Origin: Meghimatium bilineatum
Lineage: Eukaryota; Mollusca; Gastropoda; Stylommatophora; Philomycidae
DNA: 64,000 bases
NCBI GenBank assembly: GCA_034231615.1
Contig: CM067309.1
Location: forward strand, 27,179,661 to 27,243,660
Direction of reading: 5' to 3'
Of this stretch, positions 219-35,522 are shown piece by piece. The notes under the pieces are model-generated. The model made no database searches, was not told the DNA's origin, and was given only the letters and a program-made list of their open reading frames with translations. Made by a program: the position numbers and the translations under genes. The stretch's first letter is position 1. Every line of letters begins with the position of its first letter.

Positions 219-1059
219 CCTGGGGGGGGGGGCGACCATCCCCTACCAGGCGCGTCCACAGGTTGCGGATCGTGGAACAACCTCCGGATATGGAGTCTCC
301 ATATCTGGTGGTTGGCTGCAATATAAGACAGATCTCTGGACGAATAATCCAGATTTCTGGACGAATAAGCAGTCGCGGACAAACTGGCGATGTTGCCCAA
401 CAGGACGGGGTGGGATATCAGGTGGCACTGATATCTCCACTGAAATACCCCATGCGTCTCGTGACGGGCAGCATCAAGCGAGTATGAGCCGCTATAAGCT
501 CAAGCCAACAGCTGGGGTCATTGACCCCAGCATGCGCGTCCCCCAGGGTTGGGGGGACCTTTAAAATAGGGGAATATGGGAAACTATTTTCTAAAACATA
601 CAAAGGGAGAAGTCAGTAAAACCCTACTTAGGCCCCAATCAGCTCCATCCCATAAAGGAAAAAGGCAGGAAAACTTAAAAAATTCCCCTAACTGCTGGGC
701 AGGTGGCGCTCAAGAGTCCAGAAAGACAGGCCACCTAGGAGATGGAAAACTCTACACAAAGCCTGGACAGATGGTGCTCATGATCCCGGGAGGGTAGACC
801 ATCTAAGGAAAGCAAACCTAAAAAAAATAGCTGGCGGAAATCGGATGCACTTGGCCATATGGCGCATAACAAAGTGCAACGTACCTCATATACACTCGTG
901 CAGATTGAGACAATGGATTCTAGGTATGGTGCTCTTCCTGAGGAGTCCCACCAGGCGGGTAGAGTGCCGGGCCCCATGCCTCGAAGGGGCCCACCCTAAG
1001 CTACTGGTGGTCACCCTGGCCCATTTTGGAAGACCAGGAAATGGGAACAGCGGGAAATT
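219..1059 (+). promoter_or_regulatory. LINE 5' leader with hairpins
   Basis: Internal promoters of LINEs lie in this position. Visible structure includes an inverted repeat at 284-308 (arms 287-295 and 297-305 perfect, one-base loop), a perfect 9-bp stem with a one-base loop at 512-530, a G/C-rich stem around 538-559, and a 13-bp direct repeat, tctggacgaataa, near 333 and 356. No long ORF1 is open here. The function of the hairpins is unknown; ribozyme or translation roles would be inference. Confidence 0.5.
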
Positions 1060-1063
1060 ATGA
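845..1063 (+). pseudogene. Possible ORF1 remnant of the LINE
   Basis: A 72-codon frame ends with TGA at 1061-1063, which overlaps the ORF2 ATG at 1060 (ATGA). Its last 30 codons resemble in spacing the region upstream of the endonuclease in the minus-strand relative at about 54540-54620; both contain a P-x-LL-x-V motif followed by a P-G pair. A typical Jockey-type ORF1 is several hundred residues with zinc knuckles. None are seen here, so ORF1 is truncated, frameshifted or absent in this copy. It could also be chance reading. Confidence 0.3.
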
Positions 1064-4000: not shown

Positions 4001-4764
4001 TTGAGAATGGAGGTGGAGGGGTGGCCCTCAGACTAAAATGCGGGAAAGATGTTACTCTAGCCATAGCTACAGGCAAGCTCTCAACCAATTTTAAAGCAGA
4101 AATGGAAGCTCTCAAGAAAGCAGCAGAAACTATCTTACAACACAAAGAACAAGTGCACAGGAATATTGTACTACTAACAGATGCACTCTCTGTCATAACA
4201 GCACTGAAGCTACACAAGAGCACCGAACTGAATGAATTGAGGGCAGTGCTAGTTCAGTTGTACAATAATTTCCAAAGAGTAGTGATCCAGTGGATACCGG
4301 CACACTGTAACATTGAAGGGAATGAAGTTGCAGATAGACTGGCCAAAGAAGGAGGGAAGTTACCTCAAGAAGACTATCTGGTCAGTTATGAAGAAGTGAA
4401 GACCATCATTAAAGGCAACTATAATAAAAAAAAGTGGAAAGAAGACCACCCCAAATATAATGCAGATGACGGGTATTACCAACTGTCCAGAAGAGACCAG
4501 GTTATCCTGCTGCGCCTCAGAACTGGTCACAACAAAATGAGACATCATTCGTACACCAAATTCAAAATAGGGACAACTGGGCTCTGCCATTGCAGCCTTG
4601 CAAATATGACAGCAGAACATATCCTACAAGAATGTCCCCAGTATGCAGACCTGAGAAACAAGACATGGCCCACCCCAATCAGTGTTGAAGAGAAACTGTA
4701 TGGCACAATGGACACTTTAAAACAGACAGCAGCCTATATCATAGAATCCGAAGTCCCAACCTGA
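1060..4764 (+). CDS. LINE ORF2: endonuclease, reverse transcriptase, RNase H
   Basis: A 1234-residue polyprotein that nicks target DNA, copies LINE RNA onto the nick and degrades the RNA strand. The APE-type endonuclease spans residues 12-225, with WNAEG at 17-21, QETHL at 44-48, GDFNSH at 137-142 and SDHKP at 214-218. The RT spans about 440-760, with KSPGKDG at 455-461, SYRPVSL at 515-521, VDMEKAFD at 586-593, GVPQGGVLSP at 643-652 and the catalytic YADD at 675-678. The RNase H spans about 965-1097, with D974 in TDGS, E1014, D1041, H1082 and D1092. The C-terminus has C-x-C-x8-H-x4-C at 1176-1192. No internal stop or frameshift is present and all catalytic residues seen are intact. The start was chosen because an in-frame stop lies at 997 and this is the first ATG after it; the ATG overlaps the upstream stop, suggesting reinitiation. 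Length fits Jockey/I ORF2 proteins. Confidence 0.93.
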   Translation: MTGQTTRQTKGLNILHWNAEGIYHKKQALTARLDNDKIDVACIQETHLNLNHRFSIRGYQTFRQDREGHKGGVLTLIRNTIPTKQIEINTIGESEIIETDVYIENQPIRIYNIYSPVGRALKLERMDITDTHCIVVGDFNSHSERWGYQQTDSRGEEVEEWEIHNNLFLLNAQDDPPTFYSRRWKSTSTPDLAFATGDLSHKICRIVMNQLGDSDHKPIKLTINLNYTQEEQKPLPRWNYKRADWDKFAKLSDAYSEPINTHQKKIKNMTEKLTEAILRAAKDAIPRGARKNYKPYWSKEIQKLEEDLNMARELAETEQSTESNIALKAASAKYKREVKTSARRRWIEKTESLNMDKDGNKLWKLAKALSDENSSRPPITLEYNNKMHTGKAAANIFIKNYATVSQINIPKERKIEVKNEIHGLKDMPMVIEEQMLAKFTETELEEALQNLKLKKSPGKDGVTNEMLMKLGPRAKRKLLNIVNTSWRTGQVPTAWKEAIMVPILKQGKDKLDPSSYRPVSLLSCMGKLMEKMVNRRFMWHLEGKQLIAAQQSGFRQHRSTEDQVAYIAQEIEDAYQEKKHTLAVWVDMEKAFDKVWKDGLKNKLLRLGIRGHLYNWICNYMEKRTARVQVQGKRSRKRILEQGVPQGGVLSPTLFLIYINDIMEGIPTGVHSAMYADDLALWTGGVTITVAKNRMQGALHKLESWTKKWLLTINEKKTTHTIFTLTNKVQKTTLKINNHVLPLEQNPTYLGITLDSRMTWAKQTEKAEKRARNRMAIMKKLAGTNWGADSKILKRLYTGRVRPVLEYGIAAWATASKTQFNKINKTQNQATRIITASMKSTPINTLETITGLQSMEDRRDMKVVQQAEKYKRLLNHPMHQRINGYGKSRLERSNFSANAKKLIQKAPTIGQAKPRPIQLVSIIPPWAYRLPQLKEQIEGIEKKGTQTELERKRITEQHITVNYPQDAWTHAYTDGSATNAIENGGGGVALRLKCGKDVTLAIATGKLSTNFKAEMEALKKAAETILQHKEQVHRNIVLLTDALSVITALKLHKSTELNELRAVLVQLYNNFQRVVIQWIPAHCNIEGNEVADRLAKEGGKLPQEDYLVSYEEVKTIIKGNYNKKKWKEDHPKYNADDGYYQLSRRDQVILLRLRTGHNKMRHHSYTKFKIGTTGLCHCSLANMTAEHILQECPQYADLRNKTWPTPISVEEKLYGTMDTLKQTAAYIIESEVPT

Positions 4765-4780
4765 CTGAGTAATGATCGCC

Positions 4781-4797
4781 GAAGAAGAAGAAGAAGA
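4781..4797 (+). repeat. GAA-type 3' tail of the LINE
   Basis: Five to six GAA/AAG triplets end the element 16 bp after its stop codon, instead of a poly(A) tail. Short simple-sequence tails are known in several LINE clades and here mark the 3' boundary. Confidence 0.75.
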
Positions 4798-4805
4798 TCT
4801 GGTTG
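4795..4805. repeat. LINE target-site duplication, right copy
   Basis: Exact 11-bp match to 208-218. The first recognisable satellite monomer begins about 10 bp further on, so the insertion lies just outside the array. Confidence 0.85.
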
Positions 4806-4815: not shown

Positions 4816-4933
4816 TGAATAGCGGAGAACGTGCATCTATGACCGGCAGAGATAGTGCAATTATGACCGGCGGAGATCGTGTATCTATGACCGGCGGAGA
4901 TTGTGCATCTATGAATAGCGGAGATCTGCATCT
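4816..4933 (+). repeat. Satellite, diverged left edge
   Basis: About five monomers of a distinct type, with tgaccggcggagat in place of tgaatagcggggaa and with cgtgcatct where the core has tgtgtatct. One base is missing near 4926 (23-bp monomer), which breaks the 24-bp phase. Old diverged monomers at the margin and homogenised ones inside are expected where unequal exchange spares the edges. Similar mixed monomers continue inside the phased block to about 5150. Confidence 0.85.
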
Positions 4934-7900
4934 ATGAATAGCGGAGAACGTGCATCTGTGAATAGCGGAGATCGTGCATCTATGAATAGCAGAGAACGTG
5001 CATCTATTACCGGCAGAGATAGTGCAGTTATGACTGGCGGAGATAGTGCAGTTATGACCGGCGGAGATAGTGCAACTATGACTGGCAGAGATCGTGTATC
5101 AATGAATAGTGGGGAATGTGTATCTATGAATATCGGAGATCGTTCATCTATGAATAGCGGGGAGTGTGCATCTATGAATAACGGGGATCGTGCATCTATG
5201 AATAGAGGGGAGTGTGTATCTATGAATAACGGGGAGTGTGTATCTATGAATAGTGGGGAATGTGTATCTATGAATAGCGGGGAGTGTGTATCTATGAATA
5301 GTGGGGAATGTGTATCTATGAATAGCGGGTATCGTGCATCTATGAATAGCGAGGAGTGTGCATCTATGAATAGCGGGGAATGTGTATCTATGAATAGTGG
5401 GGAATGTGTATCTATGAATAGCGAGGAATGTGTATCTATGAATAGCGGGGAATGTGTATCTATGAATAGTGGGGAATGTGTATCTATGAATAGTAGGGAA
5501 TGTGTATCTATGAATAGCGAGGAATGTGTATTTATGAATAGCGGGAAATGTGTATCTATGAATAGTGGGGAATGTGTATCTATGAATAGCGAGGAATGTG
5601 TATCTATGAATAGCGAGGAATGTGTATTTATGAATAGCGGGAAATGTGTATCTATGAATAGTGGGGAATGTGTATCTATGAATAGCGAGGAATGTGTATC
5701 TATGAATAGCGGGTATCGTGCATCTATGAATAGCGAGGAATGTGTATCTATGAATAGCGGGTATCGTGTATCTATGAATAGCGAGGAATGTGTATCTATG
5801 AATAGCGGGTATCGTGTATCTATGAATAGCGAGGAATGTGTATCTATGAATAGCGGGGAATGTGTATCTATGAATAGCGGGGAATGTGTATCTATGAATA
5901 ACGGGTATCGTGTATCTATGAATAGCGAGGAATGTGTATCTATGAATAGCGAGGAATGTGTATCTATGAATAGCGGGGAATGTGTATCTATGAATAGTGG
6001 GGAATGTGTATCTATGAATAGCGAGGAATGTGTATCTATGAATAGTGGGGAATGTGTATCTATGAATAGCGGGGAATGTGTATCTATGAATAGCGGGGAA
6101 TGTGTATCTATGAATAGCGGGGAATGTGTATCTATGAATAGTGGGGAATGTGTATCTATGAATAGCGGGGAATGTGTATCTATGAATAGCGGGGAATATG
6201 TATCTATGAATAGCGGGTATCGTGTATCTATGAATAGCGAGGAATGTGTATCTATGAATAGCGGGGAATGTGTATCTATGAATAGTGGGGAATGTGTATC
6301 TATGAATAGCGAGGAATGTGTATCTATGAATAGCGGGGAATGTGTATCTATGAATAGTGGGGAATGTGTATCTATGAATAGCGAGGAATGTGTATCTATG
6401 AATAGCGAGGAATGTGTATCTATGAATAGCGAGGAATGTGTATCTATGAATAGCGAGGAATGTGTATCTATGAATAGCGGGGAATGTGTATCTATGAATA
6501 GCGAGGAATGTGTATCTATGAATAGCGAGGAATGTGTATCTATGAATAGCGAGGAATGTGTATCTATGAATAGCGAGGAATGTGTATCTATGAATAGCGA
6601 GGAATGTGTATCTATGAATAGCGGGGAATGTGTATCTATGAATAGCGAGGAATGTGTATCTATGAATAGCGAGGAATGTGTATCTATGAATAGCGAGGAA
6701 TGTGTATCTATGAATAGCGAGGAATGTGTATCTATGAATAGCGAGGAATGTGTATCTATGAATAGCGAGGAGTGTGTATCTATGAATAGCGAGGACTGTG
6801 TATCTATGAATAGCGAGGAGTGTGTATCTATGAATAGTGGGGAATGTGTATCTATGAATAGCGGGTATCGTGCATTTATGAATAGCGAGGAGTGTGTATC
6901 TATGAATAGCGGGGAATGTGTATCTATGAATAGCGGGTATCGTGCATCTATGAATAGCGGGTATCGTGCATCTATGAATAGCGGGTATCGTGCATCTATG
7001 GATAGCGGGGAGTGTGTATCTATGAATAGCGAGGAGTGTGTATCTATGAATAGTGGGGAATGTGTATCTATGAATAGCGAGGAATGTGTATCTATGAATA
7101 GCGGGTATCGTGCATCTATGAATAGCGAGGAGTGTGTATCTATGAATAGCGAGGAGTGTTTATCTATGAATAGCGAGGAGTGTGTATCTATGAATAGTGG
7201 GGAATGTGTATCAATGAATAGCGAGGAGTGTGTATCTATGAATAGTGGGGGATGTGTATCTATGAATAGCGGGTATCGTGCATCTATGAATAGCGAGGAA
7301 TGTGTATCTATGAATAGCGGAGAATGTGTATCTATGAATAGTGGAGAATGTGTATCTATGAATAGCGAGAAATGTGTATCTATGAATAGCGAGGAATGTG
7401 TATCTATGAATAGCGAGGAATGTGTATCTATGAATAGCGAGGAATGTGTATCTATGAATAGCGAGGAATGTGTATCTATGAATAGCGAGGAATATGTATC
7501 TATAAATAGCGGGTATCGTGTATCTATGAATAGCGAGGAATGTGTATGTATGAATAGCGGGTATCGTGTATCTATGAATAGCGAGGAATGTGTATCTATG
7601 AATAGCGAGTATCGTGTATCTATGAATAGCGAGGAATGTGTATCTATGAATAGCGGGGAATGTGTATCTATGAATAGCGGGGAATGTGTATCTATGAATA
7701 ACGGGTATCGTGTATCTATGAATAGCGAGGAATGTGTATCTATGAATAGCGAGGAATGTGTATCTATGAATAGCGGGGAATGTGTATCTATGAATAGTGC
7801 GGAATGTGTATCTATGAATAGCGAGGAATGTGTATCTATGAATAGTGGGGAATGTGTATCTATGAATAGCGGGGAATGTGTATCTATGAATAGCGGGGAA

Positions 7901-10900
7901 TGTGTATCTATGAATAGCGGGGAATGTGTATCTATGAATAGTGGGGAATGTGTATCTATGAATAGCGGGGAATATGTATCTATGAATAGCGGGTATCGTG
8001 TATCTATGAATAGCGAGGAATGTGTATCTATGAATAGCGGGGAATGTGTATCTATGAATAGTGGGGAATGTGTATCGATGAATAGCGGGTATCGTGCATC
8101 TATGAATAGCGAGGAGTGTGCATCTATGAATAGCGGGGAATGTGTATCTATGAATAGTAGGGAATGTGTATCTATGAATAGCGAGGAATGTGTATTTATG
8201 AATAGCGGGGAATGTGTATCTATGAATAGTGGGGAATGTGTATCTATGAATAGCGAGGAATGTGTATCTATGAATAGCGGGTATCGTGCATCTATGAATA
8301 GCGAGGAGTGTGTATCTATGAATAGCGAGGAGTGTTTATCTATGAATAGCGAGGAGTGTGTATCTATGAATAGTGGGGAATGTGTATCTATGAATAGCGA
8401 GGAGTGTGTGTCTATGAATAGTGGGGGATGTGTATCTATGAATAGCGGGGAATGTGTATCTATGAATAGTGGGGAATGTGTATCTATGAATAGCGAGGAA
8501 TGTGTATCTATGTATAGCGAGGAATGTGTATCTATGAATAGCGAGGAATGTGTATCTATGAATAGCGAGGAATATGTATCTATAAATAGCGGGTATCGTG
8601 TATCTATGAATAGCGAGGAATGTGTATCTATGAATAGCGGGTATCGTGTATCTATGAATAGCGAGGAATGTGTATCTATGAATAGCGGGTATCGTATATC
8701 TATGAATAGCGAGGAATGTGTATCTATGAATAGCGGGGAATGTGTATCTATGAATAGCGGGGAATGTGTATCTATGAATAACGGGTATCGTGTATCTATG
8801 AATAGCGAGGAATGTGTATCTATGAATAGTGGGGAATGTGTATCTATGAATAGCGGGGAATGTGTATCTATGAATAGCGGGGAATGTGTATCTATGAATA
8901 GCGGGGAATGTGTATCTATGAATAGTGGGGAATGTGTATCTATGAATAGCGGGGAATGTGTATCTATGAATAGCGGGGAATATGTATCTATGAATAGCGG
9001 GTATCGTGTATCTATGAATAGCGAGGAATGTGTATTTATGAATAGCGGGGAATGTGTATCTATGAATAGTGGGGAATGTGTATCTATGAATAGCGATGAA
9101 TGTGTATCTATGAATAGCGGGGAATGTGTATCTATGAATAGTGGGGAATGTGTATCTATGAATAGCGAGGAATGTGTATCTATGAATAGCGAGGAATGTG
9201 TATCTATGAATAGCGAGGAATGTGTATCTATGAATAGCGAGGAATGTGTATCTATGAATAGCGGGGAATGTGTATCTATGAATAGCGAGGAATGTGTATC
9301 TATGAATAGCGAGGAATGTGTATCTATGAATAGCGAGGAATGTGTATCTATGAATAGCGAGGAATGTGTATCTATGAATAGCGAGGAATGTGTATCTATG
9401 AATAGCGGGGAATGTATATCTATGAATAGCGAGGAATGTGTATCTATGAATAGCGAGGAATGTGTATCTATGAATAGCGAGGAATGTGTATCTATGAATA
9501 GCGAGGAATGTGTATCTATGAATAGCGAGGAATGTGTATCTATGAATAGCGAGGAGTGTGTATCTATGAATAGCGAGGACTGTGTATCTATGAATAGCGA
9601 GGAGTGTGTATCTATGAATAGTGGGGAATGTGTATCTATGAATAGCGGGTATCGTGCATTTATGAATAGCGAGGAGTGTGTATCTATGAATAGCGGGGAA
9701 TGTGTATCTATGAATAGCGGGTATCGTGCATCTATGAATAGCGGGTATCGTGCATCTATGAATAGCGGGTATCGTGCATCTATGGATAGCGGGGAGTGTG
9801 TATCTATGAATAGCGAGGAGTGTGTATCTATGAATAGTGGGGAATGTGTATCTATGAATAGCGAGGAATGTGTATCTATAAATAGCGGGTATCGTGCATC
9901 TATGAATAGCGAAGAGTGTGTATCTATGAATAGCGAGGAATGTTTATCTATGAATAGTGGGGAATGTGTATCTATGAATAGCGAGGAGTGTGTATCTATG
10001 AATAGTGGGGGATGTGTATCTATGAATAGCGGGTATCGTGCATCTATGAATAGCGAGGAATGTGTATCTATGAATAGCGGAGAATGTGTATCTATGAATA
10101 GTGGAGAATGTGTATCTATGAATAGCGAGAAATGTGTATCTATGAATAGCGAGGAATGTGTATCTATGAATAGCGGGGAATGTGTATGTATGAATAGTGG
10201 GGAATGTGTATCTATGAATAGTGGGGAATGTGTATCTATGAATAGCGAGGAATGTGTATCTATGAATAGCGAGGAATGTGTATCTATGAATAGCGAGGAA
10301 TGTGTATCTATGAATAGCGAGGAATATGTATCTATAAATAGCGGGTATCGTGTATCTATGAATAGCGAGGAATGTGTATCTATGAATAGCGGGTATCGTG
10401 TATCTAGGAATAGCGAGGAATGTGTATCTATGAATAGCGGGTATCATGTATCTATGAATAGCGAGGAATGTGTATCTATGAATAGCGGGGAATGTGTATC
10501 TATGAATAGCGGGGAATGTGTATCTATGAATAACGGGTATCGTGTATCTATGAATAGCGAGGAATGTGTATCTATGAATAGCGAGGAATGTGTATCTATG
10601 AATAGCTGGGAATGTGTATCTATGAATAGTGGGGAATGTGTATCTATGAATTGCGAGGAATGTGTATCTATGAATAGTGGGGAATGTGTATCTATGAATA
10701 GCGGGGAATGTGTATCTATGAATAGCGGGGAATGTGTATCTATGAATAGCGGGGAATGTGTATCTATGAATAGTGGGGAATGTGTATCTATGAATAGCGG
10801 GGAATGTGTATCTATGAATAGCGGGGAATATGTATCTATGAATAGCGGGTATCGTGTATCTATGAATAGCGAGGAATGTGTATCTATGAATAGCGGGGAA

Positions 10901-13148
10901 TGTGTATCTATGAATAGTGGGGAATGTGTATCTATGAATAGCGAGGAATGTGTATCTATGAATAGCGGGGAATGTGTATCTATGAATAGTGGGGAATGTG
11001 TATCTATGAATAGCGAGGAATGTGTATCTATGAATAGCGAGGAATGTGTATCTATGAATAGCGAGGAATGTGTATCTATTAATAGCGAGGAATGTGTATC
11101 TATGAATAGCGGGGAATGTGTATCTATGAATAGCGAGGAATGTGTATCTATGAATAGCGAGGAATGTGTATCTATGAATAGCGAGGAATGTGTATCTATG
11201 AATAGCGAGGAATGTGTATCTATGAATAGCGAGGAATGTGTATCTATGAATAGCGGGGAATGTGTATCTATGAATAGCGAGGAATGTGTATCTATGAATA
11301 GCGAGGAATGTGTATCTATGAATAGCGAGGAATGTGTATCTATGAATAGCGAGGAATGTGTATCTATGAATAGCGAGGAGTGTGTATCTATGAATAGCGA
11401 GGAGTGTGTATCTATGAATAGCGAGGACTGTGTATCTATGAATAGCGAGGAGTGTGTATCTATGAATAGCGAGGAGTGTGTATCTATGAATAGTGGGTAT
11501 CGTGCATTTATGAATAGCGAGGAGTGTGTATCTATGAATAGCGGGGAATGTGTATCTATGAATAGCGGGTATCGTGCATCTATGAATAGCGGGTATCGTG
11601 CATCTATGAATAGCGGGTATCGTGCATCTATGGATAGCGGGGAGTGTGTATCTATGAATAGCGAGGAGTGTGTATCTATGAATAGTGGGGAATGTGTATC
11701 TATGAATAGCGAGGAATGTGTATCTATGAATATCGGGTATCGTGCATCTATGAATAGCGAGGAGTGTGTATCTATGAATAGCGAGGAGTGTTTATCTATG
11801 AATAGCGAGGAGTGTGTATCTATGAATAGTGGGGAATGTGTATCTATGAATAGCGAGGAGTGTGTATAAATGAATAGTGGGGGATGTGTATCTATGAATA
11901 GCGGGTATCGTGCATCTATGAATAGCGAGGAATGTGTATCTATGAATAGCGGAGAATGTGTATCTATGAATAGTGGAGAATGTGTATCTATGAATAGCGA
12001 GAAATGTGTATCTATGAATAGCGAGGAATGTGTATCTATGAATAGCGGGGAATGTGTATGTATGAATAGTGGGGAATGTGTATCTATGAATAGTGGGGAA
12101 TGTGTATCTATGAATAGCGAGGAATGTGTATCTATGAATAGCGAGGAATGTGTATCTATGAATAGCGAGGAATGTGTATCTATGAATAGCGAGGAATATG
12201 TATCTATAAATAGCGGGTATCGTGTATCTATGAATAGCGAGGAATGTGTATCTATGAATAGCGGGTATCGTGTATCTATGAATAGCGAGGAATGTGTATC
12301 TATGAATAGCGGGTATCGTGTATCTATGAATAGCGAGGAATGTGTATCTATGAATAGCGGGGAATGTGTATCTATGAATAGCGGGGAATGTGTATCTATG
12401 AATAACGGGTATCGTGTATCTATGAATAGCGAGGAATGTGTATCTATGAATAGCGAGGAATGTGTATCTATGAATAGCGGGGAATGTGTATCTATGAATA
12501 GTGGGGAATGTGTATCTATGAATAGCGAGGAATGTGTATCTATGAATATTGGGGAATGTGTATCTATGAATAGCGGGGAATGTGTATCTATGAATAGCGG
12601 GGAATGTGTATCTATGAATAGCGGGGAATGTGTATCTATGAATAGTGGGGAATGTGTATCTATGAATAGCGGGGAATGTGTATCTATGAATAGCGGGGAA
12701 TATGTATCTATGAATAGCGGGTATCGTGTATCTATGAATAGCGAGGAATGTGTATCTATGAATAGCGCGGAATGTGTATCTATGAATAGTGGGGAATGTG
12801 TATCGATGAATAGCGGGTATCGTGCATCTATGAATAGCGAGGAGTGTGCATCTATGAATAGCGGGGAATGTGTATCTATGAATAGTAGGGAATGTGTATC
12901 TATGAATAGCGAGGAATGTGTATTTATGAATAGCGGGGAATGTGTAGCTATGAATAGTGGGGAATGTGTATCTATGAATAGCGAGGAATGTGTATCTATG
13001 AATAGCGGGTATCGTGCATCTTTGAATAGCGAGGAGTGTGTATCTATGAATAGCGAGGATTGTTTATCTATGAATAGCGAGGAGTGTGTATCAATGAATA
13101 GTGGGGAATGTGTATCTATGAATAGCGAGGAGTGTGTATCTATGAATA

Positions 13149-14996
13149 GTGGGGGATGTGTATCTATGAATAGTGGGTATCGTGCATCTATGAATAGCGA
13201 GGAATGTGTATCTATGAATAGCGGAGAATGTGTATCTATGAATAGTGGAGAATGTGTATCTATGAATAGCGAGAAATGTGTATCTATGAATAGCGAGGAA
13301 TGTGTATCTATGAATAGCGGGGAATGTGTATCTATGAATAGTGATGAATGTGTATCTATGAATAGCGAGGAATGTGTATCTATGAATAGCGAGGAATGTG
13401 TATCTATGAATAGCGAGGAATGTGTATCTATGAATAGCGAGGAATATGTATCTATAAATAGCGGGTATCGTGTATCTATGAATAGCGAGGAATGTGTATC
13501 TATGAATAGCGGGTATCGTGTATCTATGAATAGCGAGGAATGTGTATCTATGAATAGCGGGTATCGTGTATCTATGAATAGCGAGGAATGTGTATCTATG
13601 AATAGCGGGGAATGTGTATCTATGAATAGCGGGGAATGTGTATCTATGAATAACGGGTATCGTGTATCTATGAATAGCGAGGAATGTGTATCTATGAATA
13701 GCGAGGAATGTGTATCTATGAATAGCGGGGAATGTGTATCTATGAATAGTGGGGAATGTGTATCTATGAATAGCGAGGAATGTGTATCTATGAATAGTGG
13801 GGAATGTGTATCTATGAATAGCGGGGAATGTGTATCTATGAATAGCGGGGAATGTGTATCTATGAATAGCGGGGAATGTGTATCTATGAATAGTGGGGAA
13901 TGTGTACCTATGAATAGCGGGGAATGTGTATCTATGAATAGCGGGGAATATGTATCTATGAATAGCGGGTATCGTGTATCTATGAATAGCGAGGAATGTG
14001 TATCTATGAATAGCGGGGAATGTGTATCTATGAATAGTGGGGAATGTGTATCTATGAATAGCGAGGAATGTGTATCTATGAATAGCGGGGAATGTGTATC
14101 TATGAATAGTGGGGAATGTGTATCTATGAATAGCGAGGAATGTGTATCTATGAATAGCGAGGAATGTGTATCTATGAATAGCGAGGAATGTGTATCTATG
14201 AATAGCGAGGAATGTGTATCTATGAATAGCGGGGAATGTGTATCTATGAATAGCGAGGAATGTGTATCTATGAATAGCGAGGAATGTGTATCTATGAATA
14301 GCGAGGAATGTGTATCTATGAATAGCGAGGAATGTGTATCTATGAATAGCGAGGAATGTGTATCTATGAATAGCGGGGAATGTGTATCTATGAATAGCGA
14401 GGAATGTGTATCTATGAATAGCGAGGAATGTGTATCTATGAATAGCTGGGAATGTGTATCTATGAATAGCGAGGAATGTGTATCTATGAATAGCGAGGAA
14501 TGTGTATCTATGAATAGCGAGGAGTGTGTATCTATGAATAGCGAGGACTGTGTATCTATGAATAGCGAGGAGTGTGTATCTATGAATAGTGGGGAATGTG
14601 TATCTATGAATAGCGGGTATATTGCATTTATGAATAGCGAGGAGTGTGTATCTATGAATAGCGGGGAATGTGTATCTATGAATAGCGGGTATCGTGCATC
14701 TATGAATAGCGGGTATCGTGCATCTATGAATAGCGGGTATCGTGCATCTATGGATAGCGGGGAGTGTGTATCTATGAATAGCGAGGAGTGTGTATCTATG
14801 AATAGTGGGGAATGTGTATCTATGAATAGCGAGGAATGTGTATCTATGAATAGCGGGTATCGTGCCTCTATGAATAGCGAAGAGTGTGTATCTATGAATA
14901 GCGAGGAGTGTTTATCTATGAATAGCGAGGAGTGTGTATCTATGAATAGTGGGGAATGTGTATCTATGAATAGCGAGGAGTGTGTATCTATGAATA
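13149..14996 (+). repeat. Representative full higher-order repeat unit, 77 monomers
   Basis: Delimited by the rare agt-ggg-gga-tgt monomer at 13149 and 14997, a distance of 1848 bp. The next upstream full unit, 10005-11877, is 78 monomers. The unit contains in order the gag-aaa monomer, three ggg-tat-cgt monomers alternating with gag-gaa, the aataac marker, a run of ggg-gaa monomers ending in gaa-tat, a gag-gaa run ending in gag-gac, a tripled ggg-tat-cgt block and the atg-gat-agc monomer. Shorter units (48, 49, 53 and 66 monomers) lack internal blocks of this order. Confidence 0.8.
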
Positions 14997-16274
14997 GTGG
15001 GGGATGTGTATCTATGAATAGCGGGTATCGTGCATCTATGAATAGCGAGGAATGTGTATCTATGAATAGCGGAGAATGTGTATCTATGAATAGTGGAGAA
15101 TGTGTATCTATGAATAGCGAGAAATGTGTATCTATGAATAGCGAGGAATGTGTATCTATGAATAGCGGGGAATGTGTATGTATGAATAGTGGGGAATGTG
15201 TATCTATGAATAGTGGGGAATGTGTATCTATGAATAGCGAGGAATGTGTATCTATGAATAGCGAGGAATGTGTATCTATGAATAGCGAGGAATGTGTATC
15301 TATGAATAGCGAGGAATATGTATCTATAAATAGCGGGTATCGTGTATCTATGAATAGCGAGGAATGTGTATCTATGAATAGCGGGTATCGTGTATCTATG
15401 AATAGCGAGGAATGTGTATCTATGAATAGCGGGTATCGTGTATCTATGAATAGCGAGGAATTTGTATCTATGAATAGCGGGGAATGTGTATCTATGAATA
15501 TCGGGGAATGTGTATCTATGAATAACGGGTATCGTGTATCTATGAATAGCGAGGAATGTGTATCTATGAATAGCGAGGAATGTGTATCTATGAATAGCGG
15601 GGAATGTGTATCTATGAATAGTGGGGAATGTGTATCTATGAATAGCGAGGAATGTGTATCTATGAATAGTGGGGAATGTGTATCTATGAATAGCGGGGAA
15701 TGTGTATCTATGAATAGCGGGGAATGTGTATCTATGAATAGCGGGGAATGTGTATCTATGAATAGTGGGGAATGTGTATCTATGAATAGCGGGGAATGTG
15801 TATCTATGAATAGCGGGGAATATGTATCTATGAATAGCGGGTATCGTGTATCTATGAATAGCGAGGAATGTGTATCTATGAATAGCGGGGAATGTGTATC
15901 TATGAATAGTGGGGAATGTGTATCTATGAATAGCGAGGAATGTGTATCTATGAATAGCGGGGAATGTGTATCTATGAATAGTGGGGAATGTGTATCTATG
16001 AATAGCGAGGAATGTGTAACTATGAATAGCGAGGAATGTGTATCTATGAATAGCGAGGATTGTTTATCTATGAATAGCGAGGAGTGTGTATCTATGAATA
16101 GTGGGGAATGTGTATCTATGTATAGCGAGGAGTGTGTATCTATGAATAGTGGGGGATGTGTATCTATGAATAGTGGGTATCGTGCATCTATGAATAGCGA
16201 GGAATGTGTATCTATGAATAGCGGAGAATGTGTATCTATGAATAGTGGAGAATGTGTATCTATGAATAGCGAGA

Positions 16275-17570
16275 AATGTGTATCTATGAATAGCGAGGAA
16301 TGTGTATCTATGAATAGCGGGGAATGTGTATCTATGAATAGTGATGAATGTGTATCTATGAATAGCGAGGAATGTGTATCTATGAATAGCGAGGAATGTG
16401 TATCTATGAATAGCGAGGAATGTGTATCTATGAATAGCGAGGAATATGTATCTATAAATAGCGGGTATCGTGTATCTATGAATAGCGAGGAATGTGTATC
16501 TATGAATAGCGGGTATCGTGTATCTATGAATAGCGAGGAATGTGTATCTATGAATAGCGGGTATCGTGTATCTATGAATAGCGAGGAATGTGTATCTATG
16601 AATAGCGGGGAATGTGTATCTATGAATAGCGGGGAATGTGTATCTATGAATAACAGGTATCGTGTATCTATGAATAGCGAGGAATGTGTATCTATGAATA
16701 GCGAGGAATGTGTATCTATGAATAGCGGGGAATGTGTATCTATGAATAGTGGGGAATGTGTATCTATGAATAGCGAGGAATGTGTATCTATGAATAGTGG
16801 GGAATGTGTATCTATGAATAGCGGGGAATGTGTATCTATGAATAGCGGGGAATGTGTATCTATGAATAGCGGGGAATGTGTATCTATGAATAGTGGGGAA
16901 TGTGTATCTATGAATAGCGGGGAATGTGTATCTATGAATAGCGGGGAATATGTATCTATGAATAGCGGGTATCGTGTATCTATGAATAGCGGGGAATGTG
17001 TATCTATGAATAGCGGGGAATGTGTATCTATGAATAGTGGGGAATGTGTATCTATGAATAGCGAGGAATGTGTATCTATGAATAGCGGGGAATGTGTATC
17101 TATGAATAGTGGGGAATGTGTATCTTTGAATAGCGAGGAATGTGTATCTATGAATAGCGAGGAATGTGTATCTATGAATAGCGAGGAATGTGTATCTATG
17201 AATAGCGAGGAATGTGTATCTATGAATAGCGGGGAATGTGTATCTATGAATAGCGAGGAATGTGTATCTATGAATAGCGAGGAATGTGTATCTATGAATA
17301 GCGAGGAATGTGTATCTATGAATAGCGAGGAATGTGTATCTATGAATAGCGAGGAATGTGTATCTATGAATAGCGGGGAATGTGTATCTATGAATAGCGA
17401 GGAATGTGTATCTATGAATAGCGAGGAATGTGTATCTATGAATAGCGAGGAATGTGTATCTATGAATAGCGAGGAATGTGTATCTATGAATAGCGAGGAA
17501 TGTGTATCTATGAATAGCGAGGAGTGTGTATCTATGAATAGCGAGGACTGTGTATCTATGAATAGCGAGG
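16275..17570 (+). repeat. 1296-bp tandem segmental duplication, copy 1
   Basis: Matches 17571-18866 at an offset of 1296 bp (54 monomers). Markers shared only by the pair include aataacagg (16652 and 17948) and a ttg-for-atg change (17124 and 18420). Identity stops at 16274 and 17572, where single bases differ. No differences were noticed within the copies. Confidence 0.85.
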
Positions 17571-18866
17571 AATGTGTATCTATGAATAGCGAGGAATGTG
17601 TATCTATGAATAGCGGGGAATGTGTATCTATGAATAGTGATGAATGTGTATCTATGAATAGCGAGGAATGTGTATCTATGAATAGCGAGGAATGTGTATC
17701 TATGAATAGCGAGGAATGTGTATCTATGAATAGCGAGGAATATGTATCTATAAATAGCGGGTATCGTGTATCTATGAATAGCGAGGAATGTGTATCTATG
17801 AATAGCGGGTATCGTGTATCTATGAATAGCGAGGAATGTGTATCTATGAATAGCGGGTATCGTGTATCTATGAATAGCGAGGAATGTGTATCTATGAATA
17901 GCGGGGAATGTGTATCTATGAATAGCGGGGAATGTGTATCTATGAATAACAGGTATCGTGTATCTATGAATAGCGAGGAATGTGTATCTATGAATAGCGA
18001 GGAATGTGTATCTATGAATAGCGGGGAATGTGTATCTATGAATAGTGGGGAATGTGTATCTATGAATAGCGAGGAATGTGTATCTATGAATAGTGGGGAA
18101 TGTGTATCTATGAATAGCGGGGAATGTGTATCTATGAATAGCGGGGAATGTGTATCTATGAATAGCGGGGAATGTGTATCTATGAATAGTGGGGAATGTG
18201 TATCTATGAATAGCGGGGAATGTGTATCTATGAATAGCGGGGAATATGTATCTATGAATAGCGGGTATCGTGTATCTATGAATAGCGGGGAATGTGTATC
18301 TATGAATAGCGGGGAATGTGTATCTATGAATAGTGGGGAATGTGTATCTATGAATAGCGAGGAATGTGTATCTATGAATAGCGGGGAATGTGTATCTATG
18401 AATAGTGGGGAATGTGTATCTTTGAATAGCGAGGAATGTGTATCTATGAATAGCGAGGAATGTGTATCTATGAATAGCGAGGAATGTGTATCTATGAATA
18501 GCGAGGAATGTGTATCTATGAATAGCGGGGAATGTGTATCTATGAATAGCGAGGAATGTGTATCTATGAATAGCGAGGAATGTGTATCTATGAATAGCGA
18601 GGAATGTGTATCTATGAATAGCGAGGAATGTGTATCTATGAATAGCGAGGAATGTGTATCTATGAATAGCGGGGAATGTGTATCTATGAATAGCGAGGAA
18701 TGTGTATCTATGAATAGCGAGGAATGTGTATCTATGAATAGCGAGGAATGTGTATCTATGAATAGCGAGGAATGTGTATCTATGAATAGCGAGGAATGTG
18801 TATCTATGAATAGCGAGGAGTGTGTATCTATGAATAGCGAGGACTGTGTATCTATGAATAGCGAGG
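17571..18866 (+). repeat. 1296-bp tandem segmental duplication, copy 2
   Basis: Second copy, directly adjacent to copy 1. Both ends lie inside ordinary gag-gaa monomers, consistent with out-of-register exchange at monomer homology. Confidence 0.85.
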
Positions 18867-20330
18867 AGTGTGTATCTATGAATAGTGGGGAATGTGTATC
18901 TATGAATAGCGGGTATATTGCATTTATGAATAGCGAGGAGTGTGTATCTATGAATAGCGGGGAATGTGTATCTATGAATAGCGGGTATCGTGCATCTATG
19001 AATAGCGGGTATCGTGCATCTATGAATAGCGGGTATCGTGCATCTATGGATAGCGGGGAGTGTGTATCTATGAATAGCGAGGAGTGTGTATCTATGAATA
19101 GTGGGGAATGTGTATCTATGAATAGCGAGGAATGTGTATCTATGAATAGCGGGTATCGTGCATCTATGAATAGCGAAGAGTGTGTATCTATGAATAGCGA
19201 GGAGTGTTTATCTATGAATAGCGAGGAGTGTGTATCTATGAATAGTGGGGAATGTGTATCTATGAATAGCGAGGAGTGTGTATCTATGAATAGTGGGGGA
19301 TGTGTATCTATGAATAGCGGGTATCGTGCATCTATGAATAGCGAGGAATGTGTATCTATGAATAGCGGAGAATGTGTATCTATGAATAGTGGAGAATGTG
19401 TATCTATGAATAGCGAGAAATGTGTATCTATGAATAGCGAGGAATGTGTATCTATGAATAGCGGGGAATGTGTATGTATGAATAGTGGGGAATGTGTATC
19501 TATGAATAGTGGGGAATGTGTATCTATGAATAGCGAGGAATGTGTATCTATGAATAGCGAGGAATGTGTATCTATGAATAGCGAGGAATGTGTATCTATG
19601 AATAGCGAGGAATATGTATCTATAAATAGCGGGTATCGTGTATCTATGAATAGCGAGGAATGTGTATCTATGAATAGCGGGTATCGTGTATCTATGAATA
19701 GCGAGGAATGTGTATCTATGAATAGCGGGTATCGTGTATCTATGAATAGCGAGGAATGTGTATCTATGAATAGCGGGGAATGTGTATCTATGAATATCGG
19801 GGAATGTGTATCTATGAATAACGGGTATCGTGTATCTATGAATAGCGAGGAATGTGTATCTATGAATAGCGAGGAATGTGTATCTATGAATAGCGGGGAA
19901 TGTGTATCTATGAATAGTGGGGAATGTGTATCTATGAATAGCGAGGAATGTGTATCTATGAATAGTGGGGAATGTGTATCTATGAATAGCGGGGAATGTG
20001 TATTAATGAATAGCGGGGAATGTGTATCTATGAATAGCGGGGAATGTGTATCTATGAATAGTGGGGAATGTGTATCTATGAATAGCGGGGAATGTGTATC
20101 TATGAATAGCGGGGAATATGTATCTATGAATAGCGGGTATCGTGTATCTATGAATAGCGAGGAATGTGTATCTATGAATAGCGGGGAATGTGTATCTATG
20201 AATAGTGGGGAATGTGTATCTATGAATAGCGAGGAATGTGTATCTATGAATAGCGGGGAATGTGTATCTATGAATAGTGGGGAATGTGTATCTATGAATA
20301 GCGAGGAATGTGTAACTATGAATAGCGAGG
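18867..20330 (+). repeat. Segment duplicated from about 14571-16034 (offset 4296 bp)
   Basis: Rare variants recur at a constant offset of 179 monomers: ggg-tat-att near 14623 and 18919, aat-atc-ggg near 15500 and 19796, and gta-act near 16017 and 20313. A few private differences exist (for example ttt at 15471, and ttaatg at 20003), so it predates the 1296-bp duplication or has simply drifted. Confidence 0.75.
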
Positions 20331-23300
20331 AATGTGTAACTATGAATAGCGAGGAATGTGTATCTATGAATAGCGAGGAATGTGTATCTATGAATAGCGA
20401 GGAATGTGTATCTATGAATATCGGGGAATGTGTATCTATGAATAGCGAGGAATGTGTATCTATGAATAGCGAGGAATGTGTATCTATGAATAGCGAGGAA
20501 TGTGTATCTATGAATAGCGGGTATCGTGCATCTATGAATAGCGGGTATCGTGCATCTATGAATAGCGGGTATCGTGCATCTATGGATAGCGGGGAGTGTG
20601 TATCTATGAATAGCGAGGAGTGTGTATCTATGAATAGTGGGGAATGTGTATCTATGAATAGCGAGGAATGTGTATCTATGAATAGCGGGTATCGTGCATC
20701 TATGAATAGCGAGGAGTGTGTATCTATGAATAGCGAGGAGTGTTTATCTATGAATAGCGAGAAGTGTGTATCTATGAATAGTGGGGAATGTGTATCTATG
20801 AATAGCGGGGAATGTGTATGTATGAATAGTGGGGAATGTGTATCTATGAATAGTGGGGAATGTGTATCTATGAATAGCGAGGAATGTGTATCTATGAATA
20901 GCGAGGAATGTGTATCTATGAATAGCGAGGAATGTGTATCTATGAATAGCGAGGAATATGTATCTATAAAAAGCGGGTATCGTGTATCTATGAATAGCGA
21001 GGAATGTGTATCTATGAATAGCGGGTATCGTGTATCTATGAATAGCGAGGAATGTGTATCTATGAATAGCGGGTATCGTGTATCTATGAATAGCGAGGAA
21101 TGTGTATCTATGAATAGCGGGGAATGTGTATCTATGAATAGCGGGGAATGTGTATCTATGAATAACGGGTATCGTGTATCTAAGAATAGCGAGGAATGTG
21201 TATCTATGAATAGCGAGGAATGTGTATCTATGAATAGCGGGGAATGTGTATCTATGAATAGTGGGGAATGTGTATCTATGAATAGCGAGGAATGTGTATC
21301 TATGAATAGTGGGGAATGTGTATCTATGAATAGCGGGGAATGTGTATCTATGAATAGCGGGGAATGTGTATCTATGAATAGCGGGGAATGTGTATCTATG
21401 AATAGTGGGGAATGTGTATCTATGAATAGCGGGGAATGTGTATCTATGAATAGCGGGGAATATGTATCTATGAATAGCGGGTATCGTGTATCTATGAATA
21501 GCGAGGAATGTGTATCTATGAATAGCGGGGAATGTGTATCTATGAATAGTGGGGAATGTGTATCGATGAATCGCGGGTATCGTGCATCTATGAATAGCGA
21601 GGAGTGTGCATCTATGAATAGCGGGGAATGTGTATCTATGAATAGTAGGGAATGTGTATCTATGAATAGCGAGGAATGTGTATTTATGAATAGCGGGGAA
21701 TGTGTATCTATGAATAGTGGGGAATGTGTATCTATGAATAGCGAGGAATGTGTATCTATGAATAGCGGGTATCGTGCATCTATGAATAGCGAGGAGTGTG
21801 TATCTATGAATAGCGAGGAATGTGTATCTATGAATAGCGAGGAATGTGTATCTATGAATAGCGAGGAATGTGTATCTATGAATAGCGAGGAATGTGTATC
21901 TATGAATAGCGAGGAGTGTGTATCTATGAATAGTGGGGAATGTGTATCTATGAATAGCGAGGAATGTGTATCTATGAATAGCGGGTATCGTGCATCTATG
22001 AATAGCGAGGAGTGTGTATCTATGAATAGTGAGGAGTGTTTATCTATGAATAGCGAGGAGTGTGTATCTATGAATAGTGGGGAATGTGTATCTATGAATA
22101 GCGAGGAGTGTGTATCTATGAATAGTGGGGGATGTGTATCTATGAATAGCGGGTATCGTGCATCTATGAATAGCGAGGAATGTGTATCTATGAATAGCGG
22201 AGAATGTGTATCTATGAATAGTGGAGAATGTGTATCTATGAATAGCGAGAAATGTGTATCTATGAATAGCGAGGAATGTGTATCTATGAATAGCGGGGAA
22301 TGTGTATGTATGAATAGTGGGGAATATGTATCTATGAATAGTGGGGAATGTGTATCTATGAATAGCGAGGAATGTGTATCTATGAATAGCGAGGAATGTG
22401 TATCTATGAATAGCGAGGAATGTGTATCTATGAATAGCGAGGAATATGTATCTATAAATAGCGGGTATCGTGTATCTATGAATAGCGAGGAATGTGTATC
22501 TATGAATAGCGTGTATCGTGTATCTATGAATAGCGAGGAATGTGTATCTATGAATAGCGGGTATCGTGTATCTATGAATAGCGAGGAATGTGTATCTATG
22601 AATAGCGGGGAATGTGTATCTATGAATAGCGGGGAATGTGTATCTATGAATAACGGGTATCGTGTATCTATGAATAGCGAGGAATGTGTATCTATGAATA
22701 GCGAGGAATGTGTATCTATGAATAGCGGGGAATGTGTATCTATGAATAGTGGGGAATGTGTATCTATGAATAGCGAGGAATGTGTATCTATGAATAGTGG
22801 GGAATGTGTATCTATGAATAGCGGGGAATGTGTATCTATGAATAGCGGGGAATGTGTATCTATGAATAGCGGGGAATGTGTATCTATGAATAGTGGGGAA
22901 TGTGTATCTATGAATAGCGGGGAATGTGTATCTATGAATAGCGGGGAATATGTATCTATGAATAGCGGGTATCGTGTATCTATGAATAGCGAGGAATGTG
23001 TATCTATGAATAGCGGGGAATGTGTATCTATGAATAGTGGGGAATGTGTATCTATGAATAGCGAGGAATGTGTATCTATGAATAGCGGGGAATGTGTATC
23101 TATGAATAGTGGGGAATGTGTATCTATGAATAGCGAGGAATGTGTATCTATGAATAGCGAGGAATGTGTATCTATGAATAGCGAGGAATGTGTATCTATG
23201 AATAGCGAGGAATGTGTATCTATGAATAGCGGGGAATGTGTATCTATGAATAGCGAGGAATGTGTATCTATGAATAGCGAGGAATGTGTATCTATGAATA

Positions 23301-26300
23301 GCGAGGAATGTGTATCTATGAATAGCGAGGAATGTGTATCTATGAATAGCGAGGAATGTGTATCTATGAATAGCGGGGAATGTGTATCTATGAATAGCGG
23401 GGAATGTGTATCTATGAATAGCGAGGAATGTGTATCTATGAATAGCGAGGAATGTGTATCTATGAATAGCGAGGAATGTGTATCTATGAATAGCGGGTAT
23501 CGTGCATCTATGAATAGCGGGTATCGTGCATCTATGAATAGCGGGTATCGTGCATCTATGGATAGCGGGGAGTGTGTATCTATGAATAGCGAGGAGTGTG
23601 TATCTATGAATAGTGGGGAATGTGTATCTATGAATAGCGAGGAATGTGTATCTATGAATAGCGGGTATCGTGCATCTATGAATAGCGAGGAGTGTGTATC
23701 TATGAATAGCGAGGAGTGTTTATCTATGAATAGCGAGAAGTGTGTATCTATGAATAGTGGGGAATGTGTATCTATGAATAGCGAGGAGTGTGTATCTATG
23801 AATAGTGGGGGATGTGTATCTATGAATAGCGGGTATCGTGCATCTATGAATAGCGAGGAATGTGTATCTATGAATAGCGGAGAATGTGTATCTATGAATA
23901 GTGGAGAATGTGTATCTATGAATAGCGAGAAATGTGTATCTATGAATAGCGAGGAATGTGTATCTATGAATAGCGGGGAATGTGTATGTATGAATAGTGG
24001 GGAATGTGTATCTATGAATAGTGGGGAATGTGTATCTATGAATAGCGAGGAATGTGTATCTATGAATAGCGAGGAATGTGTATCTATGAATAGCGAGGAA
24101 TGTGTATCTATGAATAGCGAGGAATATGTATCTATAAATAGCGGGTATCGTGTATCTATGAATAGCGAGGAATGTGTATCTATGAATAGCGGGTATCGTG
24201 TATCTATGAATAGCGAGGAATGTGTATCTATGAATAGCGGGTATCGTGTATCTATGAATAGCGAGGAATGTGTATCTATGAATAGCGGGGAATGTGTATC
24301 TATGAATAGCGGGGAATGTGTATCTATGAATAACGGGTATCGTGTATCTATGAATAGCGAGGAATGTGTATCTATGAATAGCGAGGAATGTGTATCTATG
24401 AATAGCGGGGAATGTGTATCTATGAATAGTGGGGAATGTGTATCTATGAATAGCGAGGAATGTGTATCTATGAATAGTGGGGAATGTGTATCTATGAATA
24501 GCGGGGAATGTGTATCTATGAATAGCGGGGAATGTGTATCTATGAATAGCGGGGAATGTGTATCTATGAATAGTGGGGAATGTGTATCTATGAATAGCGG
24601 GGAATGTGTATCTATGAATAGCGGGGAATATGTATCTATGAATAGCGGGTATCGTGTATCTATGAATAGCGAGGAATGTGTATCTATGAATAGCGGGGAA
24701 TGTGTATCTATGAATAGTGCGGAATGTGTATCGATGAATCGCGGGTATCGTGCATCTATGAATAGCGAGGAGTGTGCATCTATGAATAGCGGGGAATGTG
24801 TATCTATGAATAGTAGGGAATGTGTATCTATGAATAGCGAGGAATGTGTATTTATGAATAGCGGGGAATGTGTATCTATGAATAGTGGGGAATGTGTATC
24901 TATGAATAGCGAGGAATGTGTATCTATGAATAGCGGGTATCGTGCATCTATGAATAGCGAGGAGTGTGTATCTATGAATAGCGAGGAATGTGTATCTATG
25001 AATAGCGAGGAATGTGTATCTATGAATAGCGAGGAATGTGTATCTATGAATAGCGAGGAATGTGTATCTATGAATAGCGAGGAGTGTGTATCTATGAATA
25101 GCGAGGACTGTGTATCTATGAATAGCGATGAGTGTGTATCTATGAATAGTGGGGAATGTGTATCTATGAATAGCGGGTATCGTGCATTTATGAATAGCGA
25201 GGAGTGTGTATCTATGAATAGCGGGGAATGTGTATCTATGAATAGCGGGTATCGTGCATCTATGAATAGCGGGTATCGTGCATCTATGAATAGCGGGTAT
25301 CGTGCATCTATGGATAGCGGGGAGTGTGTATCTATGAATAGCGAGGAGTGTGTATCTATGAATAGTGGGGAATGTGTATCTATGAATAGCGAGGAATGTG
25401 TATCTATGAATAGCGGGTATCGTGCATCTATGAATAGCGAGGAGTGTGTATCTATGAATAGTGAGGAGTGTTTATCTATGAATAGCGAGGAGTGTGTATC
25501 TATGAATAGTGGGGAATGTGTATCTATGAATAGCGAGGAGTGTGTATCTATGAATAGTGGGGGATGTGTATCTATGAATAGCGGGTATCGTGCATCTATG
25601 AATAGCGAGGAATGTGTATCTATGAATAGCGGAGAATGTGTATCTATGAATAGTGGAGAATGTGTATCTATGAATAGCGAGAAATGTGTATCTATGAATA
25701 GCGAGGAATGTGTATCTATGAATAGCGGGGAATGTGTATGTATGAATAGTGGGGAATGTGTATCTATGAATAGTGGGGAATGTGTATCTATGAATAGCGA
25801 GGAATGTGTATCTATGAATAGCGAGGAATGTGTATCTATGAATAGCGAGGAATGTGTATCTATGAATAGCGAGGAATATGTATCTATAAATAGCGGGTAT
25901 CGTGTATCTATGAATAGCGAGGAATGTGTATCTATGAATAGCGGGTATCGTGTATCTATGAATAGCGAGGAATGTGTATCTATGAATAGCGGGTATCGTG
26001 TATCTATGAATAGCGAGGAATGTGTATCTATGAATAGCGGGGAATGTGTATCTATGAATAGCGGGGAATGTGTATCTATGAATAACGGGTATCGTGTATC
26101 TATGAATAGCGAGGAATGTGTATCTATGAATAGCGAGGAATGTGTATCTATGAATAGCGAGGAATGTGTATCTATGAATAGTGGGGAATGTGTATCTATG
26201 AATAGCGGGGAATGTGTATCTATGAATAGCGGGGAATGTGTATCTATGAATAGCGGGGAATGTGTATCTATGAATAGTGGGGAATGTGTATCTATGAATA

Positions 26301-27517
26301 GCGGGGAATGTGTATCTATGAATAGCGGGGAATATGTATCTATGAATAGCGGGTATCGTGTATCTATGAATAGCGAGGAATGTGTATCTATGAATAGCGG
26401 GGAATGTGTATCTATGAATAGTGGGGAATGTGTATCTATGAATAGCGAGGAATGTGTATCTATGAATAGCGGGGAATGTGTATCTATGAATAGTGAGGAA
26501 TGTGTATCTATGAATAGCGAGGAATGTGTATCTATGAATAGCGAGGAATGTGTATCTATGAATAGCGAGGAATGTGTATCTATGAATAGCGAGGAATGTG
26601 TATCTATGAATAGCGGGGAATGTGTATCTATGAATAGCGAGGAATGTGTATCTATGAATAGCGAGGAATGTGTATCTATGAATAGCGAGGAATGTGTATC
26701 TATGAATAGCGAGGAATGTGTATCTATGAATAGCGAGGAATGTGTATCTATGAATAGCGGGGAATGTGTATCTATGAATAGCGAGGAATGTGTATCTATG
26801 AATAGCGAGGAATGTGTATCTATGAATAGCGAGGAATGTGTATCTATGAATAGCGAGGAATGTGTATCTATGAATAGCGAGGAATGTGTATCTATGAATA
26901 GCGAGGAGTGTGTATCTATGAATAGCGAGGACTGTGTATCTATGAATAGCGAGGAGTGTGTATCTATGAATAGTGGGGAATGTGTATCTATGAATAGCGG
27001 GTATCGTGCATTTATGAATAGCGAGGAGTGTGTATCTATGAATAGCGGGGAATGTGTATCTATGAATAGCGGGTATCGTGCATCTATGAATAGCGGGTAT
27101 CGTGCATCTATGAATAGCGGGTATCGTGGATCTATGAATAGCGGATATCGTGCATCTATGGATAGCGGGGAGTGTGTATCTATGAATAGCGAGGAGTGTG
27201 TATCTATGAATAGTGGGGAATGTGTATCTTTGAATTACGGGTATCGTGCATCTATGAATAGCGGGTATCGTGCATCTATGAATAGCGAGGAGTGTGTATC
27301 TATGAATAGCGAGGAGTGTGTATCTATGAATAGCGAGGAGTGTGTATCTATGAATAGCGGGGAATGTGTATCTATGAATAGCGGAGATCGGGCATCTATG
27401 AATAGCGGGTATCGTGCATCTATGAATAGCGAGGAGTGTGTATCTATGAATAGCGAGGAGTGTGTATCTATGAATAGCGAGGAGTGTGTATCTATGAATA
27501 GCGGGGAATCGTGCATC

Positions 27518-27610
27518 TATGAATAGCAGATATTGTGCATCTGCGGAGGTCGTGCATATATTACCTGCGGATATCGTACAACTATGACCCGTGGAGATTG
27601 TGCATCTATA
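27518..27610 (+). repeat. Satellite, diverged right edge
   Basis: The phase slips by one base in the monomer starting at 27494 (25 bp). Three to four degenerate monomers follow, with gcggaggtcgtgcat and atgacccgtggagattgtg, resembling the left-edge types. The array then ends in unrelated sequence. Confidence 0.85.
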
Positions 27611-35460: not shown

Positions 35461-35522
35461 TAATCAATAGAAGGTGGTACTGCTAGTAGAACATAATGGA
35501 CAATAATACTCACGTGTAAAAC

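What the first reader, a model, noticed from the sequence alone, without database searches (positions are those of the whole stretch)
4934..27517. 22.6-kb satellite keeps perfect 24-bp phase through 940 monomers
Seen directly: ATG landmarks at 4934, 11870 and 27494 and all 14 aataac markers are exact multiples of 24 apart. One-base phase breaks occur only in the two edge zones (near 4926 and 27510). By eye the core carries roughly 40 private or nearly private base substitutions, so several 1-2 bp indels would be expected from usual animal indel:substitution ratios. None is present. Either homogenisation purges indels far better than substitutions, or frame is constrained, or assembly polishing removed them.
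Basis: partly seen in the sequence, partly recalled or inferred. Interest (0 to 1): 0.8.

Follow-up and report, generated by a model that had tools for sequence, protein, structure and literature searches.

The report
Homogenised 24-bp satellite with higher-order repeats
A 22.6-kb block of a 24-letter DNA repeat stays in perfect register, most likely because it is built from copied blocks that hold only a few dozen independent mutations; it looks like ordinary satellite DNA with a mild, unproven shortage of insertions and deletions, not like a protein gene.

Summary
In detail: 4934-27517 is 941 consecutive 24-mers without a phase break. (1) The monomers are not independent: they form copied blocks of 48-131 monomers, and the inner core needs about 45-85 substitution events, 24-36 of them recent. 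(2) With an indel:substitution ratio measured on repeat pairs in this window's flanks (24 non-run gaps to 306 mismatches), 1.9-2.8 indels are expected beside the recent events (P of none 0.17-0.08) and 3.5-6.7 beside all inner-core events (P 0.04-0.003); the least favourable count, 119 steps over the full core, gives 9.3 expected and P 0.0005. This is a deficit whose strength depends on counting, in a core that is bounded by the nearest phase breaks. (3) Coding constraint is not supported: recent changes are 5 synonymous, 32 nonsynonymous, 2 stop, against 5.7 synonymous and 2.16 stop expected. (4) The diverged outer zone has 3 indels for about 42 substitutions, the ordinary ratio. Best reading: ordinary satellite homogenised by in-register exchange. 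A real indel-purging bias, or polishing, cannot be excluded without raw reads.

The parts
4816..4933 (+). Left edge of the array: five diverged monomers, the last a 23-mer (4911-4933), i.e. a 1-base phase break
4934..27517 (+). Core: 941 consecutive 24-mers in one phase, 90 distinct types; majority consensus ATGAATAGCGGGGAATGTGTATCT
4934..5173 (+). First ten core monomers, in phase but diverged from the core consensus by 1 to 11 bases each
7317..25638 (+). Ten occurrences of a higher-order-block marker (GCGGAGAATG), spaced 115, 78, 53, 77, 48, 131, 118, 70 and 73 monomers
11867..11869 (+). Only stop codon (TAA, two adjacent changes) in the ATG-phase + frame of the core
27494..27518 (+). 25-mer: 1-base insertion, right-hand phase break
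27519..27607 (+). Right edge: four diverged monomers, one a 17-mer lacking 7 bases (27543-27559)
219..4794 (+). Neighbour, not part of the satellite: non-LTR retrotransposon (frame 1000-4764) with a GAA-repeat tail; candidate 11-bp target-site duplication at 208-218 and 4795-4805

Best explanation
An ordinary non-coding minisatellite/satellite array in a retroelement-rich eukaryotic (probably animal) genome. It grew and turned over by in-register unequal exchange or copying of blocks of whole monomers. Most monomers are copies within recently spread higher-order blocks, so the core records only a few dozen independent mutations; at ordinary indel:substitution ratios this predicts a few indels, and seeing none is unlikely at about the percent level. 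The sequence has few runs of five or more bases and little hairpin potential, which should lower the input of indels. The indels that exist lie in the diverged outer monomers that homogenisation no longer reaches. Shown: phase, block structure, diverged edges, lack of a coding signal. Inferred: exchange as the mechanism, and low indel input as the cause of the residual deficit.
For: Copied blocks: 114 monomers with 10 substitutions at lag 179, 53 monomers with none at lag 54; marker spacings all whole monomers. Few independent events: 39 private changes at 698 context-matched positions of 925 examined, 26 of them in 24 monomers of unique type. Recent events alone: 1.9-2.8 indels expected, P of none 0.17-0.08. 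Outer zone 3 indels for about 42 substitutions, near the flank ratio of 24:306. Runs of 5 or more: 0.3% of core bases, 3.5% of flank bases. Strands less folded than shuffles in 12 of 12 tests, z 0.71 to 3.73. No coding signal.
Against: Counting all inner-core variation, zero indels is low: P 0.042, 0.025 and 0.003 for 45, 53 and 85 events with the non-run ratio, 0.0009 for 85 with all gaps; for the full core's 119 steps P is 0.0005 (non-run) and 0.0001 (all gaps). Among more recent flank pairs (90% identity or more) the ratio is higher still, 18 gaps to 130 mismatches. Edge against core P 0.0005. Runs of exactly four G are common in the core (313) and could have slipped.
Confidence: 0.75

Rival explanations
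1. Homogenisation itself purges indels better than substitutions, for instance because loops in heteroduplex DNA are repaired towards the majority length, or because out-of-register monomers are poor partners in exchange.
For: 0 indels against 45-119 core substitution events, P 0.042 to 0.0005 with the non-run flank ratio; the three indels all lie in the outermost monomers; outer against inner zone P 0.04 with 85 inner events.
Against: Recent events alone are compatible with the ordinary ratio (P 0.17-0.08); outer against inner is P 0.09 with 53 inner events; the whole array, 3 indels against a minimum of 52 alleles, is P 0.44. The core is delimited by its own nearest breaks. No direct evidence of biased repair.
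Confidence: 0.14
2. Assembly or polishing removed real 1-2 base indels from the core.
For: Nothing positive; read-level data are not available. Repeats of this length and identity are a known difficulty (general knowledge).
Against: Private substitutions survived (26 in monomers of unique type), three indels survived at the edges, and the core is poor in long runs, where consensus indel errors concentrate (the last point is general knowledge).
Confidence: 0.08
3. The array is a coding repeat (MNSGECVS/MNSEECVS octapeptide) and selection on the reading frame removes indels.
For: 24 is a multiple of 3, and the ATG-phase + frame has one stop in 7528 codons.
Against: Recent changes in that frame: 5 synonymous against 5.7 expected, 2 stop against 2.16 expected. 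A minus frame is almost as open (ORFs of 1844 and 5596 codons). A frame that is open in one monomer stays open by copying. Six Pfam families match a 200-residue piece by whole-protein score, none with a stretch that passes on its own, which I take as an effect of periodicity.
Confidence: 0.03

Closest known systems
Short-monomer satellite DNAs of insects, e.g. the 8-90 bp class of the locust satellitome (PMC4935994, passages seen)
   Same: Head-to-tail arrays of a short monomer with internal divergence; amplification by unequal crossing-over is proposed there
   Different: Within-array phase is not what I saw reported there
Satellites with higher-order repeats (PMC4053949, passages seen)
   Same: Blocks of several variant monomers amplified together
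   Different: Blocks here are long (48-131 monomers) and irregular; that survey excluded monomers under 50 bp and describes evolution by indel acquisition, the opposite of this core
PpSat1/PpSat2 of Phytophthora parasitica (PMC7290008, passages seen)
   Same: Monomers scored for both substitutions and indels; the authors remark on length kept better than sequence for a homologue in a sister species
   Different: One of those families evolves mainly by indels; the length remark is a comparison between species, and a structural role is not shown here

Membership tests
Satellite/minisatellite array with higher-order repeats | Long head-to-tail array of a short monomer | tested here: met
   about 950 copies of 24 bp, 4816-27607
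Satellite/minisatellite array with higher-order repeats | Blocks of monomers repeated as units | tested here: met
   diagonals at lags of 54-179 monomers among others; ten marker copies 48-131 monomers apart
Satellite/minisatellite array with higher-order repeats | Homogenised core with diverged ends | tested here: met
   distance to consensus 0.75-2.8 per monomer in the inner bins against 3.7 in the first bin of 20 and 8.0 for the single last monomer
Satellite/minisatellite array with higher-order repeats | Present at further loci and in relatives | not tested
   own-genome search not answered in six tries
Protein-coding tandem repeat | Synonymous excess and avoidance of stops in the open frame | tested here: not met
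   5 synonymous (5.7 expected), 2 stop (2.16 expected) of 39 changes
Protein-coding tandem repeat | Transcript or protein | not testable with these tools
   no expression data
3' UTR repeat of the adjoining retrotransposon | Array lies inside the element, before its 3' tail | tested here: not met
   GAA-repeat tail and candidate target-site duplication (4795-4805) come before the array starts at 4816; no other copy of the element was available

The most novel reading that the evidence does not exclude
Satellite homogenisation carries a length bias: exchange or heteroduplex repair purges register-shifting indels several times better than base changes, so that monomer length is held by the recombination process itself.
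Probability: 0.14. Interest if true: 0.6.

Novelty: new member of a known kind. Interest (0 to 1): 0.25.

Why it matters
If the residual indel deficit held across many arrays, it would measure directly how recombination keeps satellite monomer length, an open point in satellite and centromere evolution. On this one array it is suggestive only. The practical lesson is that the number of independent events, not the number of monomers, sets the expected number of indels.

Tried and rejected
Rejected: coding constraint. In that test one of six frames (minus strand, offset 1) showed a synonymous excess, 16 against 8.9 expected, P 0.007; reading the consensus, that frame has a stop in every monomer, so I set it aside. 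Disfavoured: the array as 3' UTR of the adjoining retrotransposon, because the GAA-repeat tail and a candidate 11-bp target-site duplication come before the array.

Led nowhere: Rfam (0 matches); exact pattern in viral contigs (0); monomer strings in papers (0); paper searches on indels in satellites (4 papers; 8, 7 listed; 4; 2; 91, 8 listed; 0). I read passages of five papers only (PMC4935994, PMC4053949, PMC7290008, PMC3152781, PMC5967470). In these I saw no measured deficit of indels against flanks within one array; PMC7290008 does score indels and substitutions among monomers.

Weak: the simulation. 0 of 360 runs reached 60-110 distinct variants (medians 14, 18 and 29 against 90 observed), and it also counts indels that became fixed, which would not break phase. 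It shows in principle that indels are not lost preferentially under neutral block exchange: at ratio 0.078, 10/120, 7/120 and 1/120 runs held none.

Full report
OBSERVATION. The span 4934-27517 divides into 941 consecutive 24-mers. Of 903 ATGAATA sites between 4701 and 27700, 901 share one phase; the other two are at 4911 and 27519. 0 of 2686 distinct 30-mers occur in more than one phase. The edges hold three breaks: a 23-mer (4911-4933), a 25-mer (27494-27518) and a 17-mer (27543-27559). The core is what lies between the nearest breaks, so 'none in the core, breaks only at the edges' is partly built into the coordinates.

ANATOMY. The majority consensus is ATGAATAGCGGGGAATGTGTATCT; the commonest single type has A at position 11 (293 of 941). 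There are 90 distinct monomers, 53 seen once. Mean identity of random pairs in the inner core is 90.5%. Monomers lie in copied blocks: among 44 diagonal segments, one of 114 monomers with 10 substitutions (lag 179) and one of 53 with none (lag 54). One marker recurs ten times at spacings of 115, 78, 53, 77, 48, 131, 118, 70 and 73 monomers. Block gains and losses are thus in whole monomers, as in-register exchange would give (inference). The outermost monomers are the most diverged.

NEIGHBOURS. A non-LTR retrotransposon with an open frame of 1254 codons (1000-4764; endonuclease, reverse transcriptase and RNase H domains) ends in a GAA-repeat tail. AGATCTGGTTG occurs at 208-218 and 4795-4805, a candidate target-site duplication. 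The element looks like a separate insertion about 10 bases outside the satellite, which starts at 4816.

HOW MANY EVENTS. Of 925 monomer positions examined, 698 have a context-matched copy elsewhere; they show 39 private changes, about 36 events if three adjacent doublets count once (my merging). 13 of the 39 give a monomer type found elsewhere in the array and could be exchange; the other 26, in 24 monomers, are of unique type. For the inner core (monomers 11 to 935) the total lies between 45 minor alleles, 53 mutations if one exchange inside a monomer is allowed, and 85 spanning-tree steps. The full core gives 119 steps. The whole array with edges gives 127 steps or at least 52 alleles, and 3 indels.

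EXPECTED INDELS. Calibration on repeat pairs in the flanks of this window: 13 non-redundant pairs of 80% identity or more and 80 bases or more, 306 mismatches, 30 gap events, 24 of them outside runs, 21 of 1-2 bases; over all 26 pairs, which overlap, 563 mismatches and 57 gaps; over the 10 pairs of 90% or more, 130 and 18. With the non-run ratio: recent events, 24 and 36, give 1.9 and 2.8 expected, P 0.17 and 0.08; inner-core events, 45, 53 and 85, give 3.5, 4.2 and 6.7 expected, P 0.042, 0.025 and 0.003; the full core, 119 steps, gives 9.3 expected, P 0.0005. With all gaps the figures are lower: 0.12 and 0.04 for the recent events, 0.02 and 0.0009 for 45 and 85, 0.0001 for 119. With 1-2 base gaps only they are higher: 0.22, 0.10, 0.06, 0.007 and 0.001 for 24, 36, 45, 85 and 119. 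For the whole array, 3 indels against 127 steps gives P 0.028, against 52 alleles P 0.44 (non-run). A published Drosophila figure, noncoding indel diversity about ten times below 4-fold-site diversity (PMC5967470, passage seen), is of the same order as the flank ratio.

OUTER ZONE. Edges plus the first ten and last six core monomers hold 3 indels for about 42 substitution steps (127 minus 85), near the flank ratio; against the inner zone P is 0.04 with 85 events and 0.09 with 53. The narrower test, edges against core, gives P 0.0005, but those edges are defined by their indels.

WHY FEW INDELS. Runs of 5 or more bases make up 0.3% of the core and 3.5% of the flanks; runs of four G are common in the core, 313. 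Single strands fold less than dinucleotide shuffles in 12 of 12 tests of six 240-base windows, z 0.71 to 3.73, and z 2.56 in a seventh window. Both should lower the input of slippage indels; that step is inference. In a simulation of block gain and loss (360 runs) indels stayed in the array: at ratio 0.078, 10/120, 7/120 and 1/120 runs held none. No run reached the observed number of variants, so it checks the principle only; the surplus of rare variants in the real array suggests a recent expansion (inference).

FRAME. The ATG-phase + frame has one stop (TAA, 11867-11869) in 7528 codons. The 39 recent changes in that frame are 5 synonymous, 32 nonsynonymous and 2 stop, against 5.7 synonymous and 2.16 stop when the same changes are placed at random (1000 draws). 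The two stop counts are the two adjacent changes that make the one TAA. There is no sign of coding selection. A minus frame is nearly as open.

VERDICT. Observation confirmed; interpretation partly supported. This is most likely an ordinary homogenised satellite with a mild indel deficit whose size depends on how events are counted. Low input, a bias of homogenisation, and polishing cannot be told apart without reads. 

Noticed in passing
window 219-4794, plus strand: Apparently intact-frame non-LTR retrotransposon (1254 codons, endonuclease, RT, RNase H) with GAA-repeat tail and candidate 11-bp target-site duplication, inserted about 10 bases from the satellite edge; no first ORF of 150 codons or more was listed before it.
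   Followed up: partly
window 35346-37857 and 62595-64000: Related copies 94-97% alike, one holding a weak GIY-YIG match (36602-37324; 21.5 bits, under the Pfam cut-off of 22.6). Possibly a Penelope-like element; that name is recalled, not tested.
   Followed up: no
window 57277-59675, minus strand: Second non-LTR element in pieces: endonuclease domain (58524-59675) and reverse transcriptase fragment (57277-57813).
   Followed up: no
window 27740-27781: Perfect 15-base inverted repeat with a 12-base loop just right of the array.
   Followed up: no
window 28788-28988: Inverted repeat with 50-base arms, 94% complementary, 101 bases apart; related stretches occur near 35000-35461 and 37742-37856.
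   Followed up: no
window 6001-26000: Strong and even strand asymmetry, GC skew about 0.56-0.58, carried by the monomer; both strands are unusually poor in self-folding.
   Followed up: partly
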